From NCBI GenBank assembly GCA_010645155.1, contig CM021320.1, forward strand, positions 4,615,071-4,679,070: a DNA stretch of 64,000 bases, given 5' to 3'. The DNA is from Tigriopus japonicus. Lineage: Eukaryota; Arthropoda; Copepoda; Harpacticoida; Harpacticidae. The notes under the pieces are model-generated. The model was not told the origin of the DNA. It searched no databases and was given only the letters and a program-made list of their open reading frames with translations. Below are positions 4,096-32,671 of the stretch, in pieces; within the stretch, counting starts at the first letter, position 1; each line of letters starts with the position of its first letter. The translations under genes were made by a program, and so were the position numbers.

Positions 4096-7000
4096 ATGAA
4101 ACGCAATCGGATGGAGGTGACCCGTGTGAATGTGGCCGAGGCTCATCATCCTACGGATGAGGCCGGATCCCCGGCCTCTTTAGGCAATGCCATCACGCCA
4201 AAATTGAATTTGAGTGCGGTTCGAAATGAGTTGGAGTTTTTGGAAGTGATTGATAACTCGGGAGACATCTATTATGATCCTGGGTACATTCAAAACGCTA
4301 TCAGGCGCTATGAAACCTTCTGGATCCCGTTCATTAAAGAGCATTCTGGAGAAACCGTGGCCAAAGATTTAAATGTGGCTCCACCTTTGGGTAAGTTATT
4401 AAAGGACCTCTGACGAAGATGTTAATGTTTAAAACACTTTCATTTCTTATCCAGATGTCCATTGGGTTTGGCATTGCCACATGCTCTGTCCCACTAAGTA
4501 CAAAATTGACCTCGAGAAAAGCCAATTAGGGCGGTTCATTCATCATCAACCTTTGGATTCGGCCACCTTGCAGACCCTAAGGAACCATACCCAAAAGCTG
4601 TGGGAGCGGCAGTTTCCAAAAGAGCCGTTCGATTTCTTGTCGGTCGATCCTATGAAGGTGCCCGATGGGGTTCCTTTCCAATCCAAATTCAGTTATGACA
4701 TCCTGGCCGCTGCCTTGAGACAAAGGTCTTTCTACTATCAAGTATCCTTGCCTCATTACCGCCTCAAAAGCTTCATCGGCAAGAACTTTATGCGTTATCA
4801 AATGTACCTCAAACTTAAACAAAGAAACCCAAACACGTTTCTCGTCCCTTGTTATGATATCGATATCATTTGGCACACCCACCAAGTGATCCCGGCCGAT
4901 TATCAAAACGACACTATTACAATTCTCGGCTCGATTCTTCCCCACGATGATTCAGTCAATGATCGAAGTCCTGGATCCAAACTGAACAATGCAGATGCCG
5001 AAACCAGAACCCTCTGGAGAGGTAAGTTCTCAAACTGCTGAGCTTGGCAAAGGAGGAGAGGTGCTCAATTATTCATCGACCCCAGAGAAGGTCATTAATG
5101 ATGTGGTCACCTGAGATTCCTGAAGAGCTTTTCGCTCAAATTGTTCCCTGTTGGAACAAAAGCAAAGAAAAAATCGTATCTGAGAGTCCACGCAATTTCT
5201 ATCTTTCAGAAAACTTTGGGATGGATTTTGCCCAACCAGGAGCTATGTATCGAGGTCCTACAGCCAAAGGGCGATTACTGCCTTTGACACAAGAGTTCCA
5301 AAAGTCTCTTCATACGGGAACAATGGACGTCATAATTTTCCATTCTTTCGAATTTGAGGCCGAGAAGGATCTAAAAGCCTCGGAAAAGTACGAGTACATT
5401 CTCAGAGTGTTCACGCTGAAAAGTGATTTGGGAGGAAAGTGCGAACGTCGGAGGAAATATGCCATGAAATTGAAAGGAGAGCGGACAGAGTCGAATGTGA
5501 TCAAATTTGTTAATCCGGCTGAGTGTCTTACCATCCCCGAAGGCTGTGACGGCGAAATAGAGTTTGAGGTCGAGCGTCGCTCCAAGACTCAGAAGCCTTC
5601 CATATTCTCATGCTTGGGATTCTCCACCCAAGACAAGTCGATCGGAGAATCCAGAAAGACACTGATATGCAAGGACTTGAAAGTAGGAGACAATTCTGTG
5701 AAGAAATCCCTTTACCCTGGTGGGATCCTTACGGGATGTGTGGTCCGAAAAAGCGACACCAATCAAGACATGATGAAAAAGCTCTACATTGCCGAGGGCA
5801 GCTACTACGATTGTGTGATCCCCGAAAATATCGAGAGTATGTGGGGTCCAATTCCATTGGAAAGATTGCCAGAGGGGGTAGACAATCACTGTAAAGCTGT
5901 TACGCATGGGTAAGAGCACTCAAACCATTCGTAGCCAATGAAAGAGCACCTCTAATGTATAATTTTCCGCAGGATTTACGATCCAAATGGCGTAAAAATG
6001 TTTTCAGTATATTTGATTCATTCTTTGCCTTTGGAGATGTCCGCCATTCAAGTGTTCGTCGGCGATAAAATGGCCACTGTGGCGCATCTGGTTGGTCCGG
6101 ACACCCTCGGGACTGACGAAACCAGATTAGGACTGGCTGAGGACGTAAGTATAATAAAAAATGTATGTATCCACATCTACATTGAAGCTTGAAGCTCCTT
6201 TGAGCCTGTTGTGCCTTTTGTGATCAAGAATTAATCCTCTTGAGATGAAAATATGTCGCTCGGACGGAAACGGCTCTTTTTCGGCATATTCCGCTCAAAA
6301 TTCGAACTCATTCGGCTTTGTGACCACTTTTCAGCTAAGAAATAAGCCCTACAGAGCAATGCTGATCAAAGACAATGATGGAGATTGGGGTATTTGTACT
6401 GCTGCTTGGCTTGGAATGAAGGCTGGAACTCCAGGAATTCCAGCCTCCAGAGGACGGAGAGGCATACCAGGGGTTCCTGGAAAGCCTGGATACTTTAAGA
6501 TGTATTTCTTTAATCTGAGGTTGGTCAACCATCACATTTCCGTTTTCAAAGATCCTCTTTTGATAATAGAGTTCCATGTCTTCTCCTTTCAGGACTAAGG
6601 AGCACAAAAGCATTGTGTTTCCGGAGAATTTTACGGCTGTTTCAGGACACAAGTATCGATTCACTCTTCCTAACCTCTTCGTAGACCTGGAGAAAGGTTC
6701 CATGGTCATCACCCCACCAAATCACAACACAGGGGCCATCCCTAATGGGCATCACGGAAAGTCAGCTCCCAAAAAGGAGCCCGCCCCTCCTAAGCCCTAT
6801 GAAATGGCTCAACAAGTCACTTTGGCGTTTGCCACCTCACTTCTTTATCTCATGGTCCAACCACACCCTGCCAATTTCGAGGACGAAGATTCCAAAAAGA
6901 TCATTATGACTGCCAACGACGGAGTTAGAATCCGCCCAATGTTCCTTGAGTGCGCTCAACTAGCATTTCTTACCTATTGCGGCTGGAAATTCCGCAATGA

Positions 7001-7427: not shown

Positions 7428-8218
7428 CACACGGTGTGAATTTGAGCTCAAGAAGTCATTTTTAACTTCCAAAAACCTTTAAGACCACTTTTGAGGTGTT
7501 AATGTAATACTGGATATGAATTTGAATTCTGTTACATGGGGTTCGCGTAATTAGGTCACGGGAAAAAATACGTTATGAGGTTGCTTAAAACATGCTTAAA
7601 GCAAATTGTTTAGACATTTTCTTCAGCCTAACTCTCAATTAATCTGATTTGTGGGTCTACCTAAAATATTGTCGAACTTTATACCTAAAATATTGTCGAA
7701 CTTTACTTAGCCGTTTATCTAAATTGTTGTAATGACCCTCTTGTTTGGTCCTTCGAGAATGCCGCTGGAAAAGGTCATTGAAAATAGATCCGCGACATAG
7801 ATTTCCAAAATATTTAAAAACAGATCCGCGACATAGATTTCCACAATATTTAAAAACAGATCCGCGACATAGATTTCCAAAATATTTGAAAACAGATCCG
7901 CGACATAGATTTCCAAAATATTTGAAAACAGATCCGCGACATAGATTTCCAAAATATTTGAAAACAGATCCGCGACATAGATTTCCAAAATATTTGAAAA
8001 CAATACTGCTCTAAGTACATCCATGACTTTAGTCAAAATTTTTTTTTTTTCAAATATTTCTTTTTAAGTGTGTTTTAAGTAATATACTAGTGTTTTTGTA
8101 CGTGACTTATTTAACTGAATTCAAATAATTGTTCAGCATTGCATTCACATCTAAAAAGTGGTTTCAAATGTTTTTGGAAGTTAAAAATGACTTCTTGAGC
8201 CCAAATACACACCGTGTG
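7428..8218. mobile_element. Non-autonomous TIR element with internal minisatellite
   Basis: The two ends are inverted copies. 7428-7534 matches the reverse complement of 8112-8218 over ~107 bp at roughly 80% identity by eye, with the outermost 11 bases (CACACGGTGTG) identical and themselves near-palindromic. Similarity continues weakly inward (TAGGTCACG versus TAAGTCACG). The interior holds a 22-bp sequence repeated twice (7661-7706, ending ATTGTCGAACTTT) and the 36-bp tandem array listed next. No transposase frame is present. I could not define a convincing target duplication. The position just past the DUF1399 stop means the element probably lies in that gene's 3' region. Confidence 0.75.
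7786..8002. repeat. 36-bp minisatellite, six copies
   Basis: The unit begins AGATCCGCGACATAGATTTC and recurs at 7786, 7822, 7858, 7894, 7930 and 7966, exactly 36 bp apart. It differs only at a couple of sites (CAAAATATTTA/G, one CCACAATA). As 36 is a multiple of three, both strands stay open and give repeated 12-residue peptides; these are by-products of the period, not evidence of a protein. Confidence 0.95.
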
Positions 8219-19652: not shown

Positions 19653-22484
19653 ATGACCAACGGACGAATTATGGCCCTGCCCACTGACACGCCCAACGCC
19701 GACCTCCATCAAATCTCAACTCAAATCCGAGAAGGTCCCTCATCAAATCTTGTTCCAAATGTCCAACCTCCAAATGAAGACCAAGTTGTTCTGGTTCCAA
19801 GAATTCCTTGTGATGAATGTCGAAAGGACTGCAAGGACATCTTGGCCTTGAAAGACCAATGTTCGAAACTCAGATTGGATCTGGCCAATACAAGAAGGAA
19901 ACGGGAGCTCAAAGAGCAAGAGATGACTCAAAAAATTGCGGACCTAAAAACGGAACACGTCAAAGCCATGCATTCATTGAAATCAACGGTTCTTGGACGG
20001 GAAGATCAAGGAGACCTACTGAAGAGGGATTTCAAAAGGTGAGATATTAAAGGCAGGAGATTTTGAGCCCTTCTTGCCAATGAAAAGCAAAAAGTAAACC
20101 TTCTACTTTTCATTTCAAACACTAAAGGAAAAAGCTATTCCTCAAACAAGCAAAAAGTAAGTTTTAGTCGTTTCAAGAAGACATCTTGAAAAAAAATTGC
20201 TGAGTACGTTTTTGTCCCGGTATTTTTGGGCAAGAATGTTATCCTACTGGAAACGATAATTCATCTAGATTATAGCTAATTTGTAGCATTTTTATGATTG
20301 ATTGACCTAAAAAATATGTTTGCAAGTCAGTGTGGGCAAAGTTTTCAACCTCGGTTTACAAATCGTCGCAACTAATAGCAGAGAGCAACTTTCAAATTGA
20401 GACCTCTTTCTGCAAGCCTTTTTCATTGGCTTGACAACGGCATACTCAGGCTAAAGTTAATTGCTACTTTAAAATAACCTTTTGTGGGCACAAAAGAATT
20501 CATTAAAGAGACTCATAATAGGTCGATTGTTGAGGTAGTTTGTAAGTATAGTAGAAGCATAGCTAGAAACACAAAAGAAGCACATGAGACGGAGTAGAAA
20601 TAGCCATGCTCGATCAAGTTTCGCTACGTAGTGAGCTGCGATTGAAAAATTGAAAAACGCAGCTTATGAAGCAAAACCTGATCGAGCATGGCTATTTCTA
20701 CTCCGTCTCATGTGCTTTTTTGTGTTTCTAGCTATGCTTCTACTATACTTTAAAACTACCTCAACAACCGACCTATTAGGTCGGTTAGAGTCGGGTAGAC
20801 AAATCACCTTGAACCTTTCCTTTTGATGATAAGAAAATGATTAGTCGGATGTCAACGTTATTGGAACTTTATTCATGTGGCAAGGAAAAGAGTAAAAGTT
20901 TTTCGTTGGTAGTAAGCGAATTCCCACCCATTTTAAGCAATCTTTCAAATTCAAGTAACTGTCCAAAAACCCGATTTACAAATTGTTTATAAATGGTCTT
21001 TGTTAAACTGTTGGTTTTTTGCGACGTTTGTTATTGATAGATTTTGGAGAGGTAACTAAGCACTCACAAATATATTGCGGAAAGGAATCTATTCAAATCA
21101 ATCATTACCAAATGTAATAGGACACGCAAAATCTCGATCAAAGGATTTCCTTGTTGAAAAAGTGAAGCTCTTGGTATTTACCCTCCTGCAATAAAAGATA
21201 AAAATCAGTCAAGAATGTTTAGAAAACATCGATTGTTAACCTTTCCTTAGTGTCTTTGCACTACAGTTAAACAGATTCGTGCATTAGAAACTAACCCATG
21301 TGAATAACTAATGCAGGAGAGAGAAGTTTGCAAAGCCAAGCTGAGATTAGCTCTTGACGTCATGTCTTCCAAGAAAAGTTGCGAGGTTGAGCTCGTTTAT
21401 CATTAATGGATAAACATATATGCATATCCTGATAGATTGTTCAGAAAGTATCGATTTCGAAAGGTGAAGATGGAACGAGCTCTGGGGTGAAATCTCTTTA
21501 AGTGCTCATCTTAATACATTTGTCGAATGATCTATAACTTAACAAAATACATTACAATAAATTTTTAAAATTTTACAATCCCCCATTAAAATTTGATAAC
21601 ATTCCTCGGATTATTAGCCTTACAGACAATCAATTTTAAACCCGAAAATCAGTGCCAGATTTTGTTAATACTTGATACATGTATTCTTTTCTCTTTTATA
21701 AGGGGGAACTTTTTTAACCTGAAATAAGGTGAAGTGGTAAAAATAAATGATTTAATTTATTGACATTGGTTAACTTAGAAAAGGAACTTATCGTTAGATG
21801 GAGCAAAAAAGGACTATGTTATTTATCATACAATATGTCATTTATGTTACCAACAAAGAAAATTCATGGATTTTTTTTTCTTTTTGGGAAGTACAAATTT
21901 GAAATATAAATCATATAAAGAGATGTAATAGGCCTGTGATGCCCGTATTTATCCGTACTTTACAACACGTGAGCGAGTTAAATCGACATATTTACATATT
22001 TCCACCTTATGATAACTATGGAAAGTAGGTATATTTGAAACTACTGTAATGTTTGTCTTTCGATGACAATGCTATTCTTTCGAATAACTTTTCCATCTTC
22101 ACTGTTTAAAGCAAAAGAATGCGTTATTTTCTTTGTCTGAGTTTCGTGAATTGTTAGAAGATTTTTTCAGAACTCCTACAGAAGTTCCTACTATTCAAAA
22201 CCACTCATTCCACTTTAATCCTAAGGTATTAAAAGTTGGTTCCGTGTGATTTCAGCCTGCTTGTGGACCACGAAACTGTGGCTCGCGAAATCTTCCAGGA
22301 GAACCAAAGGCTTCGCGGAGAAATTGCCAACCTTATAATTCACATAGACGTGAAGTCGGTGGAAGCGGATGAAGAATGCTTGAAAGTGGCGAAATTGTTA
22401 AACCGACTAAAAGACACCAAACGCGGAATGAAGAATATTCACGGGGATGATGATGAATCTTATATTGAAATCATTATACCTTAA
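19653..22484 (+). CDS. Small coiled-coil protein, function unknown
   Basis: Two well-supported exons, 19653-20038 (donor AAAAG|GTGAGA, phase 2) and 22256-22484 (acceptor GTGATTTCAG, phase 2), splice cleanly to 204 aa. Residues ~50-60 have a CDECRKDC motif. From about 55 to the end the protein is charged and heptad-like (KLRLDLANTRRKRELKEQEM; EIFQENQRLRGEIANL), so it is probably a coiled coil that dimerises or binds a partner. The start at 19653 has A at -3; a second in-frame ATG six codons on (ATTATGGCC) has a better context. The 2.2 kb intron contains a foldback element. It also has two possible small exons (~20125-20155 with a near-perfect GTAAGT donor, and ~21318-21389), whose phases do not fit the two-exon chain simply. 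I do not recognise the family. Confidence 0.6.
20521..20773. mobile_element. Foldback (hairpin) element, copy 1
   Basis: The left half (GGTCGATTGTTGAGGTAGTT...) is the near-perfect reverse complement of the right half (...AACTACCTCAACAACCGACC). Arms are ~110 bp around a short centre near 20640. Only scattered mismatches occur between arms. It is bounded by TA on both sides. It lies inside the intron of the coiled-coil gene, so the transcript could fold into a long hairpin. Confidence 0.85.
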
Positions 22485-28371: not shown

Positions 28372-29071
28372 ATGGAACGAAAAAGTGAGAGTGCGCGATC
28401 GCTTTTTTTACGTTACGAAGGGCCCTTCACCCTTCACCAAAAGGAGAACAAGTAGCATTCTTAACCAACTCCCAGCTTCCTCTTTTCGTCTGTGGTTGAG
28501 GGGACGGCCTGCCCCGTCTTAAGGTCATATGTTTTGTGTTTGCAGATCCATGCTTTGAAGCATACTTCATCAATCGACTTCCATCCTTTCTACGTCTTTT
28601 TAACGTTTTCAGGCTTCTAAAATGACGCCATATGAATGTCAGCTTCCACGTATTAGATGTTTAACCCAAAATTTGGTAACAAATGCTCTAGAAGGCTTAA
28701 AATATGCTTGAAGTCAATAATGGAAGTATGCTTGCAGCATGCCTTGGTGCAAACAAAACATATGAGCTTTAGTCTAGTCTCAGCTCAAGGAAGGGAGAGC
28801 CAGCTCTTGAAGCTAGCTCTTACATTGATGCCAGATAATGGTATTTCCTGACACTTTTTGCAAAAAAAACAAGATGAAATGATTCAAAATGAAGAAGAAA
28901 TGTTTTTACTGAAAAGTGGCAGATCATGGCAGCATGGGACCTCTATAATGGCAGTGAGTGGCACTATTTCAAACAACTTTTAGCAATGTTGGCTTGAAAG
29001 ACCTGGGAACCCTGCCCTCAAGGGCCTTTCGTAACGTGAAAAAAGCGATCACGCACTCTCACTTTTTCGTT
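28372..29071. mobile_element. Inverted-repeat-bounded element, about 0.7 kb
   Basis: 28372-28424 (GGAACGAAAAAGTGAGAGTG...CGTTACGAAGGGCCC) is repeated in inverted orientation at 29017-29071 with only a few differences over ~52 bp. The ~590 bp between arms has no recognisable protein. A target duplication was not identified, so the outer ends are approximate. Confidence 0.6.
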
Positions 29072-29514
29072 CCAAAAAATTGGTTGTTACACCAATAATT
29101 GGCAAAGTTAAAAAGAAAACAGTTTGGCGGCCTTAACTTTGGGCATCATGACTTGAAACTAGAGGTGCATTATTCTGTTGAATGGATTGACATTATAGTG
29201 GAAATTCACGCGTGCTTTGGATCCTGTTTCTTCTCTTGTCTTTTGCTTGTCTTGGTCTCATTGACCTTCAAATTCTAGAAATTGAACTAAATGAAGTTAG
29301 GTCATTATTAGAGCGGCCGAAAATATTTAAAAAAATAAGTGAAATATTTAAATAATATTTAATAAAATAAGAGCGAAATATTTAAAAAAGTATTTAAAAG
29401 TGAGTGAAATATTTAAGAAATATTTAGAAAAATTAGGCTAAATATTTAAAAATATTTAAAAAATAATAAAAATTGGCAAATGTGTTAAACATACAAAAAC
29501 TATATAAAAAGTTT

Positions 29515-31251
29515 TTATTCCGTGGGACTTTTTTTTTCACCGTTGCGTGCATAGAAATAGTTAATAATAACAGTTTTTGAAAGATTTTCACAAGAAAAAC
29601 CTTGACGCCGATCAGAAAAAATGTGTTTAAATTGCGAGAAGGACCGCTCGGCATCCACTGACACAATTGGGGCAAACTTAAAAGAAGACGCACAAACAGG
29701 ACTTATTCCCAGAGGTAATGAGGAACACTCTCCAATTAGACTCTGGTTCACAGTCTTAAGGACTTTTAGGCCACCATTTTTTTCCAAGACTTGCCACAAT
29801 TTGTTTTGAAATGGTTTGATTTTGTCTCCCTTAACATCATTCAACCTATCTTCGGCATTTTTGAGGATTGCCAAAGAGTTCGATAATGACAATCCGTCTT
29901 CTTCCAGTTGGGTGATTGAAGATGAGAGGAAGCTCAGGTTTGCGTGGATGAAGGCGAGGTCTGCCTTGAGGCTGGTCTTTTTGAGCAAGGCCTGTGCTTC
30001 CTTAATTGATTGGGCACTGTCACTTTCAAACGCCTCAACAACGCTGGTAATCTTGTCAAGGTGTTGGGCATAGAATGAGGCTGCGTCAATCCACGTTCCC
30101 TAACGGGTCAAAACTGGTTCTGGGGGTAACGGCAGATTAGGGCAGCCTTCTCTATAGGCAGTACGGCGGCAAGGAGACTTCCGAAAAATCATTTTCATAG
30201 ACGCAATTAGCCTGTTTACGTCTGGAAACATCTCTGCGGCGAGATTGCAAACTCTATAACAAGGATAGAAGCACTAGTTTTCAAGAAAATTCAATAATTT
30301 TTTATTAATTGCTTACAAGTGGAGGGCATGAGCCGTGCATGTGACATGGATCAGGTGGGGGAAAAAGACCTGGAGATCTTTCCCACATTTGATCATGTAA
30401 GGGGCGGCGTCACTTAGGAGAATGCGAAGTCTGTCTCCATCAAATTCAGGATCCAATTTCCGCAGAGAATCATTAACAAGCCTTGAGAATGAAACACTCA
30501 ATCAAGTTTGCCATAGTGGTTGTAAAATTAATACTCAAAATACCTGGCCACTGTGGCAGCATCAGCCCTTTCTAAAAAGGCCACATTGATAAGGTGGGGT
30601 TTTTGAAATTCTTGGCTATCCAATTTCCCCACAAGTACATTGGCCACCTCTCGGCCTAAGGCATCCCTGGTGCAGTCGGTGGTAACCCACAGGAGCCCTT
30701 TCTTCAAGTCCTCTTTGATCCAGTGAAATGTTTCTGAATAGCATTCGGGCAAATGTTTGGCTCGTAACATGGTTTCACGGGGTAGTGTGATGCCAGATAT
30801 ATTCTGAAGAACGTCGCGAAGAATAGGATTCATCATTTTCTTTAAAGGAATATTGACTGCAAGAAATCCCTTGCAAAGTTCTCCTCCAAGTAACTCGGCT
30901 CTAGAATAAATCAATTATTACGGTCTTGAAATATTGGCAAGAAGCTGCTTTTTTAGCGACATACTTCGTTTTCTTGACTTTTTCCGTGGGTAAAATGTCC
31001 CCTAACAAAGCTTGAGAGGCGGTTCTTTTCTTCTTCAAATCCATATTCTTCTGATGCCGGCTGGTCTTGGCGTGTTGGCGGAAAAGCTCTCTCTGGGATG
31101 CCGAAAAAGTTGAGTCGCAATACTTGCAGAAACATTCGTTTGAAGACTTCAAGGAGACGTAGACATACGGAAATTCATGCCTCTCATTAAACTCTCTCAG
31201 ATGCTTCAGCTTTGTGGCCATTTTCTGACTGGGTACACTTGAAGAAGTCAT
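29515..31251 (-). pseudogene. hAT transposase (BED finger, hATC domain), disrupted
   Basis: Transcribed from right to left. Pieces: 31251 to ~30901 with a BED-type finger (CFCKYC, then H-x5-H in RQHAKTSRH); ~30912 to 30544; 30481 to 30317 with SDAAPYM and HVTCTAHALH, typical of the hAT catalytic region; 30253 to 29515 ending in the hATC dimerisation block (SVDAERSFSQFKHIFSDRR). Junctions 30544/30481 and 30317/30253 have GT-AG ends and matching phases (introns of 62-63 bp). Two lesions are visible. The BED piece and the next piece are in different frames at ~30901-30914 without a credible intron. A TAG at 30102-30100 sits where the family usually has a tryptophan (TRW-G-TW). The protein cannot be made intact from this copy. 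Confidence 0.88.
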
Positions 31252-31391
31252 TGTATTGGTGAGGGATGGACAAGATAAGTGGAAGGGGTACAAGCATAGA
31301 TACGGTACAAGCTTCACGAGTTTCCTTTCTTTTTGGATTCTCAACCCTCTTCACTTGTGGTCGTGCTCACTTCAAGATTATCACTCGAAAC

Positions 31392-32504
31392 TAGAGCTCT
31401 ATATTAGAAAGAGTACAATCATATCCAACGCCATCTAGTTCATTCTGCTCGCAACTGCTCGCCGTTCCCAAAAGGATGCACGAGTACCCTCTAAGCTGAA
31501 CAAATTTTCCAAAATATGAGACCAAGATAGCAATTTTTGAGAAACTAAGGGGCCTAGAACCCTTATGAAGGGGTCTAAAATGAACTGTTAGTGTGTTTCA
31601 AATGAGTTAAGATTGCATTACTTGTAAAATTGGGTTTAAAACTTTAAAAGACATTAAGAGAATGAAAATCTATCCCCTTGGACATATTGATGCAAGTGGT
31701 GATGGCAACAATGTGATTGGAAATGAAATTGCAGGGCTGCTGAATTCTCTTCCCTCTTGTGCTTGGCTGTCATGGTCATTGCTGAGAAAGAGCACAGGGA
31801 ATTTTCTTCATCTCTTGACTTCACCCCTGACTGCAATTTACACTTGCCCACCTACCCCTTGATATGCAAGATCACAGGTGTAAGTGGTGGTGGCCAGCAG
31901 GGGAGTCCACTCAAATGCTTGCTAGCTTCAGATGGCTTGCCCAGCTTGCCCACTGGCACTTGTTAAGAAGGGAACTGCTAGGATTGCTGGGCCGGGCCAG
32001 CTTTCTCTCTCTCTCTCGCTCGCTCGCTCTCTCTTGCTCTCGCTCTCCACACTGAGCCCAGTGAACAAACAAGGAGGACTGGACTCAAAATTTCAGGGTC
32101 GAAAGGTGAAGAAAGGAAAACTCAACATTCTCCTCTCTATCAATATTCTATCTGAAACATTTTTATGGTAGGAGCCCTGATTGCGAACGTTTTCTCTGAA
32201 AAGCATCGATCAGAGTGAGGGGTGAGATATTCATTTTTCTCTTGGTCTTTTAGGTTTTAAACTTAATTTTACAAGTAATTCAGCTTTGAATCATTTGAAA
32301 CACACTAATAGATCATTTTGGACCCCTTCATTAAGGTTCTAGGCCCTTTACTTTCTCAAAAGTTGTTACCTTGTTCTCATATTTTGGAAAAGTTGTTCAG
32401 CTTAGAGGGTACTTTTGCATTGTTTTGGGAACGGCGAGCAGTTGCGAGCCAAATCAACTAGATGGCGTTGGATATGATTGTACTCTTTCTAATATAGAGC
32501 TCTA
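31392..32504. mobile_element. Nested hAT-like foldback element, 1113 bp
   Basis: Inserted in the hAT element and flanked by perfect 8-bp duplications CTCGAAAC (31384-31391 and 32505-32512). Termini TAGAGCTCTATATTAG are inverted copies and the inverted arms extend ~255-265 bp each (31392-~31655 and ~32249-32504), with moderate divergence toward the centre. The ~600-bp loop has a CT-rich patch and frames I do not recognise. There is no transposase, so it must be moved by another element. Confidence 0.92.
32003..32047. repeat. CT/CTCG simple repeat
   Basis: Run of CTCTCTCTCTCTCGCTCGCT and CTCTTGCTCTCGCTCTC in the loop of the nested foldback element. Confidence 0.85.
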
Positions 32505-32671
32505 CTCGAAACAACGTTTGCTGATGTACTTGATAGTGTTGCCAAAAAAGTAAAGACAGCAAAAAGTTCTCTGAAAACAGCGAAATATTTAAAAAACGCC
32601 AAAATTTACAAAATATTTAAATTAAATATTTATTTATTTAATTAAATATTTTCGGCCGCTCTAGTCATTAT

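What the first reader, a model, noticed from the sequence alone, without database searches (positions are those of the whole stretch)
29301..32671. Transposon within a transposon: two hAT-type insertions each with perfect 8-bp duplications
Seen directly: a 3355-bp element (TAGAGCGGCCGAAAATATTT ends, GTCATTAT duplicated) contains a 1113-bp foldback element (TAGAGCTCTATATTAG ends, CTCGAAAC duplicated). Both share the TAGAGC start. hAT transposons are known to make 8-bp duplications. Inference: related transposases move both, and the inner insertion, sitting upstream of the transposase start, may have silenced the outer copy.
Basis: partly seen in the sequence, partly recalled or inferred. Interest (0 to 1): 0.75.

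Follow-up and report, generated by a model that had tools for sequence, protein, structure and literature searches.

The report
Foldback transposon inside a hAT transposon
A young, non-coding "jumping gene" copy with long mirror-image ends has landed inside a broken jumping gene of the hAT kind in an animal-like genome; the nesting is real, but it is an ordinary sort of event.

Summary
A 3355-bp element (29309-32663, 8-bp duplication GTCATTAT) contains a 1113-bp element (31392-32504, 8-bp duplication CTCGAAAC). The outer one is a hAT transposon. On the minus strand it encodes a BED-finger-like/DUF659 transposase, and a profile of its relatives weakly matches Hermes transposase. Its frame also has an in-frame stop. 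The inner one is a young member (1.4% from consensus) of a non-coding family with long inverted ends and 511 near-perfect ends in the genome. An exact 8-bp duplication flanks 31 of 39 readable copies. It is a separate insertion. The ends share TAGAGC and otherwise no similarity beyond chance, target motifs differ, and no transposase of the inner family's own was found. A 4.9-kb copy that seemed to carry one holds a separate P element, itself nested, with a 7-bp duplication. hAT is the likeliest mover; the P superfamily is not excluded. Ordinary biology.

The parts
29301..29308 (.). left target-site duplication of the outer element, GTCATTAT
29309..32663 (-). outer hAT transposon, 3355 bp including the insert; transposase on the minus strand
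29309..29328 (+). outer left terminal inverted repeat, 20 bp perfect; AAATATTT repeats follow (7 in 29309-29470)
29515..31251 (-). interrupted outer transposase gene read as four exons (31251-30965, 30900-30544, 30481-30317, 30253-29515; splice sites placed by hand), 515 aa with one in-frame stop at residue 321; BED-like zinc finger, DUF659, hAT C-terminal motif
   Evidence: the last acceptor was placed by eye
31384..31391 (.). left target-site duplication of the inner element, CTCGAAAC
31392..32504 (.). inner non-coding foldback-type element, 1113 bp
31392..31678 (+). inner left long terminal inverted repeat (about 287 bp)
32218..32504 (-). inner right long terminal inverted repeat (about 287 bp, 87% identical to the left)
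32505..32512 (.). right target-site duplication of the inner element, CTCGAAAC
32644..32663 (-). outer right terminal inverted repeat, 20 bp; 4 AAATATTT repeats in 32513-32663
32664..32671 (.). right target-site duplication of the outer element, GTCATTAT

Best explanation
Two cut-and-paste insertions in sequence. First a DUF659/BED-type hAT transposon inserted at GTCATTAT (shown by its ends, duplication and encoded transposase). Later a young non-autonomous element with about 287-bp inverted ends inserted at CTCGAAAC, between the right end and the transposase start of the hAT copy (shown by the duplication and by the family elsewhere in the genome). The inner family shows no gene of its own in the copies read and must be moved in trans by a transposase encoded elsewhere (inferred). 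That transposase is most likely of the hAT superfamily (inferred, about 0.6), but a different one from the outer element's.
For: Exact duplications and ends. Inner family: 40 places scored (window copy included, of 437 candidates), each matched over at least 97% of the length at 91% identity or more; 511 ends; exact 8-bp duplications in 31 of 39 copies; this copy 1.44% from the consensus of 30 copies, median 1.46%. Outer: 44 transposase relatives, one (P0035) 61% identical over 60% of the query; DUF659 in 21 of 22 aligned members and the hAT dimerisation region in 10 of 22; D171, D239 and E472 invariant in 22 of 22 (that these are the hAT catalytic acids is recalled). The profile matches transposase chains in the PDB at E 0.006-0.01, the last named Hermes. 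Target motif of the inner family T-n-GTYnnRAC-n-A (31 copies: mean 3.9 of 6 positions versus 1.6 for random flanks, highest of 2000 draws 2.4), close to hobo GTNCGNAC (PMC3276498, passages) and Hermes nTnnnnAn (PMC10368747, passages).
Against: No autonomous partner of the inner family was found. Of 40 family loci read, only L055, with its nested P element, matched any of the 77 proteins held then, but those were only P-type and DUF659-type, so a hobo- or Ac-type remnant was not tested by that call. The same motif and duplication length fit the P element (GTCCGGAC, 8 bp). Long inverted repeats are known from Mutator foldbacks and from Galileo of the P superfamily (PMC4079207, PMC3573991, passages). 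The window transposase's own Pfam scores stay below the curated cut-offs, and in the PDB search a U1 snRNP C zinc finger ranks above the transposases (E 0.0044). No empty site was seen for the left flank.
Confidence: 0.85

Rival explanations
1. The inner family belongs to the P superfamily, like Galileo, a foldback-like P element with long inverted repeats; a P-type transposase moves it.
For: Target motif T-n-GTYnnRAC-n-A resembles P GTCCGGAC with 8-bp duplications. The genome has 65 places matching the P-type RNase H domain. A 4876-bp copy of the family holds a P transposase.
Against: The P transposase in that copy belongs to a separate 3761-bp P element with its own ends CATAGAYGTC and a 7-bp duplication GCCCAGT. 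The same P end is found at three other places; two of these match only from the P terminus, and the one whose two flanks were read has a perfect 7-bp duplication GCCTGGT. Seven of nine other copies of unusual length run straight across that point without the segment; one (L056) has a different, about 950-bp mobile element at the same 7-mer, and one lacks the region. Of 23 P-domain places on the contig stretches covered by the listed perfect ends, only that one lies between two foldback ends. The TAGAG start is not the CA start of P elements (recalled).
Confidence: 0.2
2. The outer element's own hAT transposase type moves both families.
For: Both ends start TAGAGC and both make 8-bp duplications. 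Both end sequences have some 500 places.
Against: Local alignment scores of inner against outer ends lie within the range of shuffles: 15, 136, 178 and 139 of 200 shuffles reach the observed score in the four pairings. Outer ends carry AAATATTT repeats. Outer-family duplications read NTNATNAN, inner ones GTYnnRAC.
Confidence: 0.1
3. The inner family is a Mutator-type foldback element.
For: Most foldbacks are said to belong to Mutator (PMC4079207, passages).
Against: The duplication is exactly 8 bp in 31 of 39 copies, 9 bp in none; Mutator duplications are mostly 9 bp (recalled). Strong palindromic GT....AC target.
Confidence: 0.05
4. The inner segment is an ancestral part of the outer element.
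For: None beyond its position.
Against: The same segment stands at 39 other scored places, with its own different duplications. Of 30 copies with 1.5-kb flanks, only the window copy lies in outer-type sequence.
Confidence: 0.01

Closest known systems
hAT superfamily (hobo/Ac/Tam3, Hermes), DUF659/BED lineage
   Same: Outer element: short inverted ends starting TAGAG, 8-bp duplication, BED-like finger, DUF659, C-terminal motif, three invariant acidic residues, subterminal repeats.
   Different: Weak Pfam scores, and similarity to Hermes seen only by profile; this copy has a stop and an insertion.
Galileo (P superfamily, Drosophila)
   Same: Inner element: long inverted repeats, foldback look, many non-coding copies.
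   Different: Galileo makes 7-bp duplications and has a P transposase (PMC3573991, passages); the inner family makes 8-bp ones and no transposase of its own was found.
Tetris (foldback, Drosophila virilis)
   Same: Non-coding foldback, 8-9 bp duplications in its complete copies, mover unknown (PMC4079207, passages).
   Different: Tetris has internal tandem repeats and 3 complete copies; the only tandem array listed inside the inner element is a short TCTCTCGC run, and its copies are many and uniform.
1360/Hoppel (P superfamily)
   Same: The nested P element in L055 makes a 7-bp duplication, as 1360 does.
   Different: It is a passenger in another copy of the inner family, not in the window.

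Membership tests
hAT superfamily (outer element) | 8-bp target-site duplication, target like nTnnnnAn | tested here: met
   GTCATTAT on both sides; 4 of 7 other places with both ends read have perfect 8-bp duplications, all NTNATNAN
hAT superfamily (outer element) | short terminal inverted repeats starting YARNG (consensus recalled) | tested here: met
   TAGAGCGGCCGAAAATATTT, 20 of 20
hAT superfamily (outer element) | transposase with hAT DDE residues, BED finger and C-terminal dimerisation domain | tested here: met
   D171, D239, E472 and H60 invariant, C42/C45/H66 in 90% or more of 22 sequences (their role is recalled); dimerisation region in 10 of 22; transposase chains 4d1q E 0.006 and 6dww (named Hermes) E 0.01. 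The window copy alone scores below cut-offs
hAT superfamily (inner element) | 8-bp duplication and GT....AC-type target | tested here: met
   31 of 39 copies exact; motif. Not specific: P fits too
hAT superfamily (inner element) | an autonomous relative with the same ends encoding a hAT transposase | tested here: inconclusive
   none of 11 hAT or DUF659 places on the stretches covered lies between two listed perfect ends; two hAT places fetched as 4-kb pieces show no convincing ends; 411 of 511 ends were not listed
P superfamily / Galileo (inner element) | own THAP/P transposase between the long repeats | tested here: inconclusive
   the only one found is in a nested, separate P element
Galileo (inner element) | 7-bp duplication | tested here: not met
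   8 bp in 31 of 39, 7 bp in 1 of 39
Mutator foldback (inner element) | 9-bp duplication (size recalled) | tested here: not met
   9 bp in 0 of 39

The most novel reading that the evidence does not exclude
The inner family is a hAT-moved foldback element with unusually long inverted ends whose autonomous form is rare or lost in this genome, and its copies are themselves repeated landing sites for elements that make 7-bp duplications: a 3.76-kb P element and an about 950-bp element with CA...TG ends chose the same 7-mer in two different copies. Three kinds of transposon thus stack in one genome.
Probability: 0.3. Interest if true: 0.25.

Novelty: new member of a known kind. Interest (0 to 1): 0.15.

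Why it matters
The inner copy must have arrived after the outer one. The family gives clean material (exact duplications, many near-identical copies) for finding which transposase moves a non-coding foldback family. Otherwise it is routine transposon biology. It also warns that a transposase found between the ends of a foldback may be a passenger: the P element in L055 looked like the autonomous partner until its own ends and duplication were checked.

Tried and rejected
My first reading, that the inner family is a Galileo-like P element whose full-length form is the 4876-bp copy L055 (note), was rejected. The P segment has its own ends and a 7-bp duplication, and the same P end stands at other places. 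Seven of nine other copies of unusual length run across the point without it.

Search for the inner family's autonomous partner: longer copies, open frames listed for four of them; similarity to P-type and DUF659-type transposases; a variant-end pattern (2 hits, both close family ends); two hAT places scanned for ends (none convincing, elements longer than the 4-kb pieces would be missed). Nothing found. Empty site of the outer element: of 608 bp of left flank, the 233 bp nearest the element matched nothing else among the 40 places scored of 460 candidates; the right flank was not searched. Organism: not established. Named relatives of the transposases include copepods (Tigriopus californicus P0052, Lepeophtheirus salmonis P0032), beetles, a cockroach and a mite; a search with a host-like frame gave 3 unnamed hits. 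Lists of papers on copepod genomes and on P elements were seen, not read. The family consensus mixed orientations and is void; one search replaces it. The flank comparison is not affected.

Full report
What was checked. The two nested elements are present exactly as described. Outer: 29309-32663, ends TAGAGCGGCCGAAAATATTT (20 of 20), duplication GTCATTAT. Inner: 31392-32504, duplication CTCGAAAC, inverted ends of about 287 bp, 87% identical. The window lies in a 195-Mb, 158-contig assembly, which is unnamed here.

Outer element. Minus-strand frames join through three short GT-AG introns into a 515-residue reading with one in-frame stop at residue 321; the splice sites are my placement (last acceptor adjusted by eye). 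Pfam finds DUF659 (2.1e-6, below its cut-off) and weak zinc-finger and hAT-dimerisation matches. A search of 5.8 billion proteins gives 44 relatives, the best with 45% identity over 95% of the query, another 61% over 60%. I aligned 22 sequences (the window's and 21 of the 44 relatives, chosen for length). D171, D239, E472 and H60 are among the invariant positions; DUF659 is matched by 21 of 22 and the hAT dimerisation region by 10 of 22 at E 0.01. In the PDB the profile matches three transposase sequences at E 0.006, 0.0074 and 0.01 over the C-terminal region, the last named Hermes; a U1 snRNP C zinc finger ranks first at 0.0044. With the 8-bp duplication and TAGAG ends this is a hAT transposon. 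The ends carry 7 and 4 copies of AAATATTT against 0.12 and 0.04 in simple shuffles; I chose the motif after seeing the sequence. The end sequence has 546 places in the genome. Of the 100 perfect places listed, facing pairs lie mostly 0.6-1.1 kb apart, so most visible copies are short non-autonomous ones. Coding relatives are few: pieces 85% and 92% identical at C25, a 90% piece of about 260 bp at C2, weaker pieces elsewhere. None of the copies read spans the point of the inner insertion.

Inner element. It has 511 ends within 2 mismatches, and 40 places were scored, of 437 candidates, at 91% identity or more, the window copy included. Among the 100 perfect ends listed, 39 facing pairs within 8 kb are 306 to 4876 bp long, 26 of them 1.0-1.2 kb or within 5 bp of that. 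Of 40 loci fetched, 39 had both ends readable: 31 show an exact 8-bp duplication, 34 when one mismatch is allowed, 5 show none. Pairing flanks of different copies gives 1 of 1482. The target motif is T-n-GTYnnRAC-n-A. The window copy differs from the consensus of 30 copies by 1.44%, family median 1.46%, so it is a typical young copy. No copy read, apart from L055, matched the P-type and DUF659-type transposases held.

The false partner. The 4876-bp copy at C3:4381998-4386873 (L055) encodes a P-type transposase (TNP-like RNase H 3.2e-14, GTP-binding insertion domain 4.7e-5, the latter just below its cut-off; P transposase 6p5a only E 0.018). Its frame is split by a stop and a short extra stretch (by eye). 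Comparison with the inner element shows two collinear blocks meeting at a 7-bp repeat. The segment of 3761 bp begins CATAGATGTC and ends GACGTCTATG, with a further inverted repeat GACCGCTCGGCTGTCTA inside, flanked by GCCCAGT twice. Its end occurs at three other places. At C1 both flanks could be read and carry GCCTGGT twice; at C4 and C3 the other end did not lie in what I fetched. Of nine other copies of unusual length, seven run across the point in one piece, one (L063) lacks the region, and one (L056) has an about 950-bp different segment there. That segment is a mobile element too: it recurs in L057 and L059 at other points of the foldback, with CA...TG ends and 7-bp duplications ACTCAAA and GCTGGGC, and GCCCAGT/GCCCAAT in L056. 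So L055 is a P element that landed in a foldback copy, at a 7-mer that a second element also hit, not the foldback's autonomous form.

What moves the inner family. Published motifs are GTNCGNAC (hobo, 8 bp), GTCCGGAC (P, 8 bp), GTTNAAC (1360, 7 bp) (PMC3276498, passages) and nTnnnnAn for Hermes (PMC10368747, passages). Motif and duplication therefore allow hAT or P. The TAGAG start favours hAT (recalled consensus). The P family measured here makes 7-bp duplications, which disfavours that particular family. I put hAT other than the outer type at about 0.6, P at 0.2, the outer element's own type at 0.1, the rest Mutator or other.

Silencing. The insertion lies about 140 bp upstream of the first ATG and could remove the promoter or leader from the gene. 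That is inference. The frame also has a stop, so the insertion need not have caused the loss of function.

Verdict. A real nested insertion of two ordinary transposon families; a new member of known kinds.

Noticed in passing
L055:867-4627 (G000:C3:4381998-4386873): A 3761-bp P element with CATAGAYGTC ends and 7-bp duplication inserted into a copy of the inner foldback family; four places of its end in the genome, and 65 P-type RNase H places overall.
   Followed up: partly
L056:1159-2115, also L057 and L059: An about 950-bp element with CA...TG ends and 7-bp duplications sits in three different copies of the inner family, at three points; in L056 it uses the same 7-mer as the P element in L055. 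Possibly a non-autonomous P-type element.
   Followed up: partly
window 28373-29074: Another repeat with 55-bp inverted ends (95%) just left of the outer element; parts occur elsewhere at 82-99% identity (C5, C8, C63). No clear duplication seen.
   Followed up: partly
window 20516-20778: A short near-perfect foldback (two nested inverted repeats of 61 and 57 nt).
   Followed up: no
window 4481-5913: Likely host gene; its first frame (4481-5041) has a GRDP-like domain at 5.4e-34.
   Followed up: no
window 7778-8002: Tandem array of a 36-bp unit, 6.2 copies, 97% matches.
   Followed up: no
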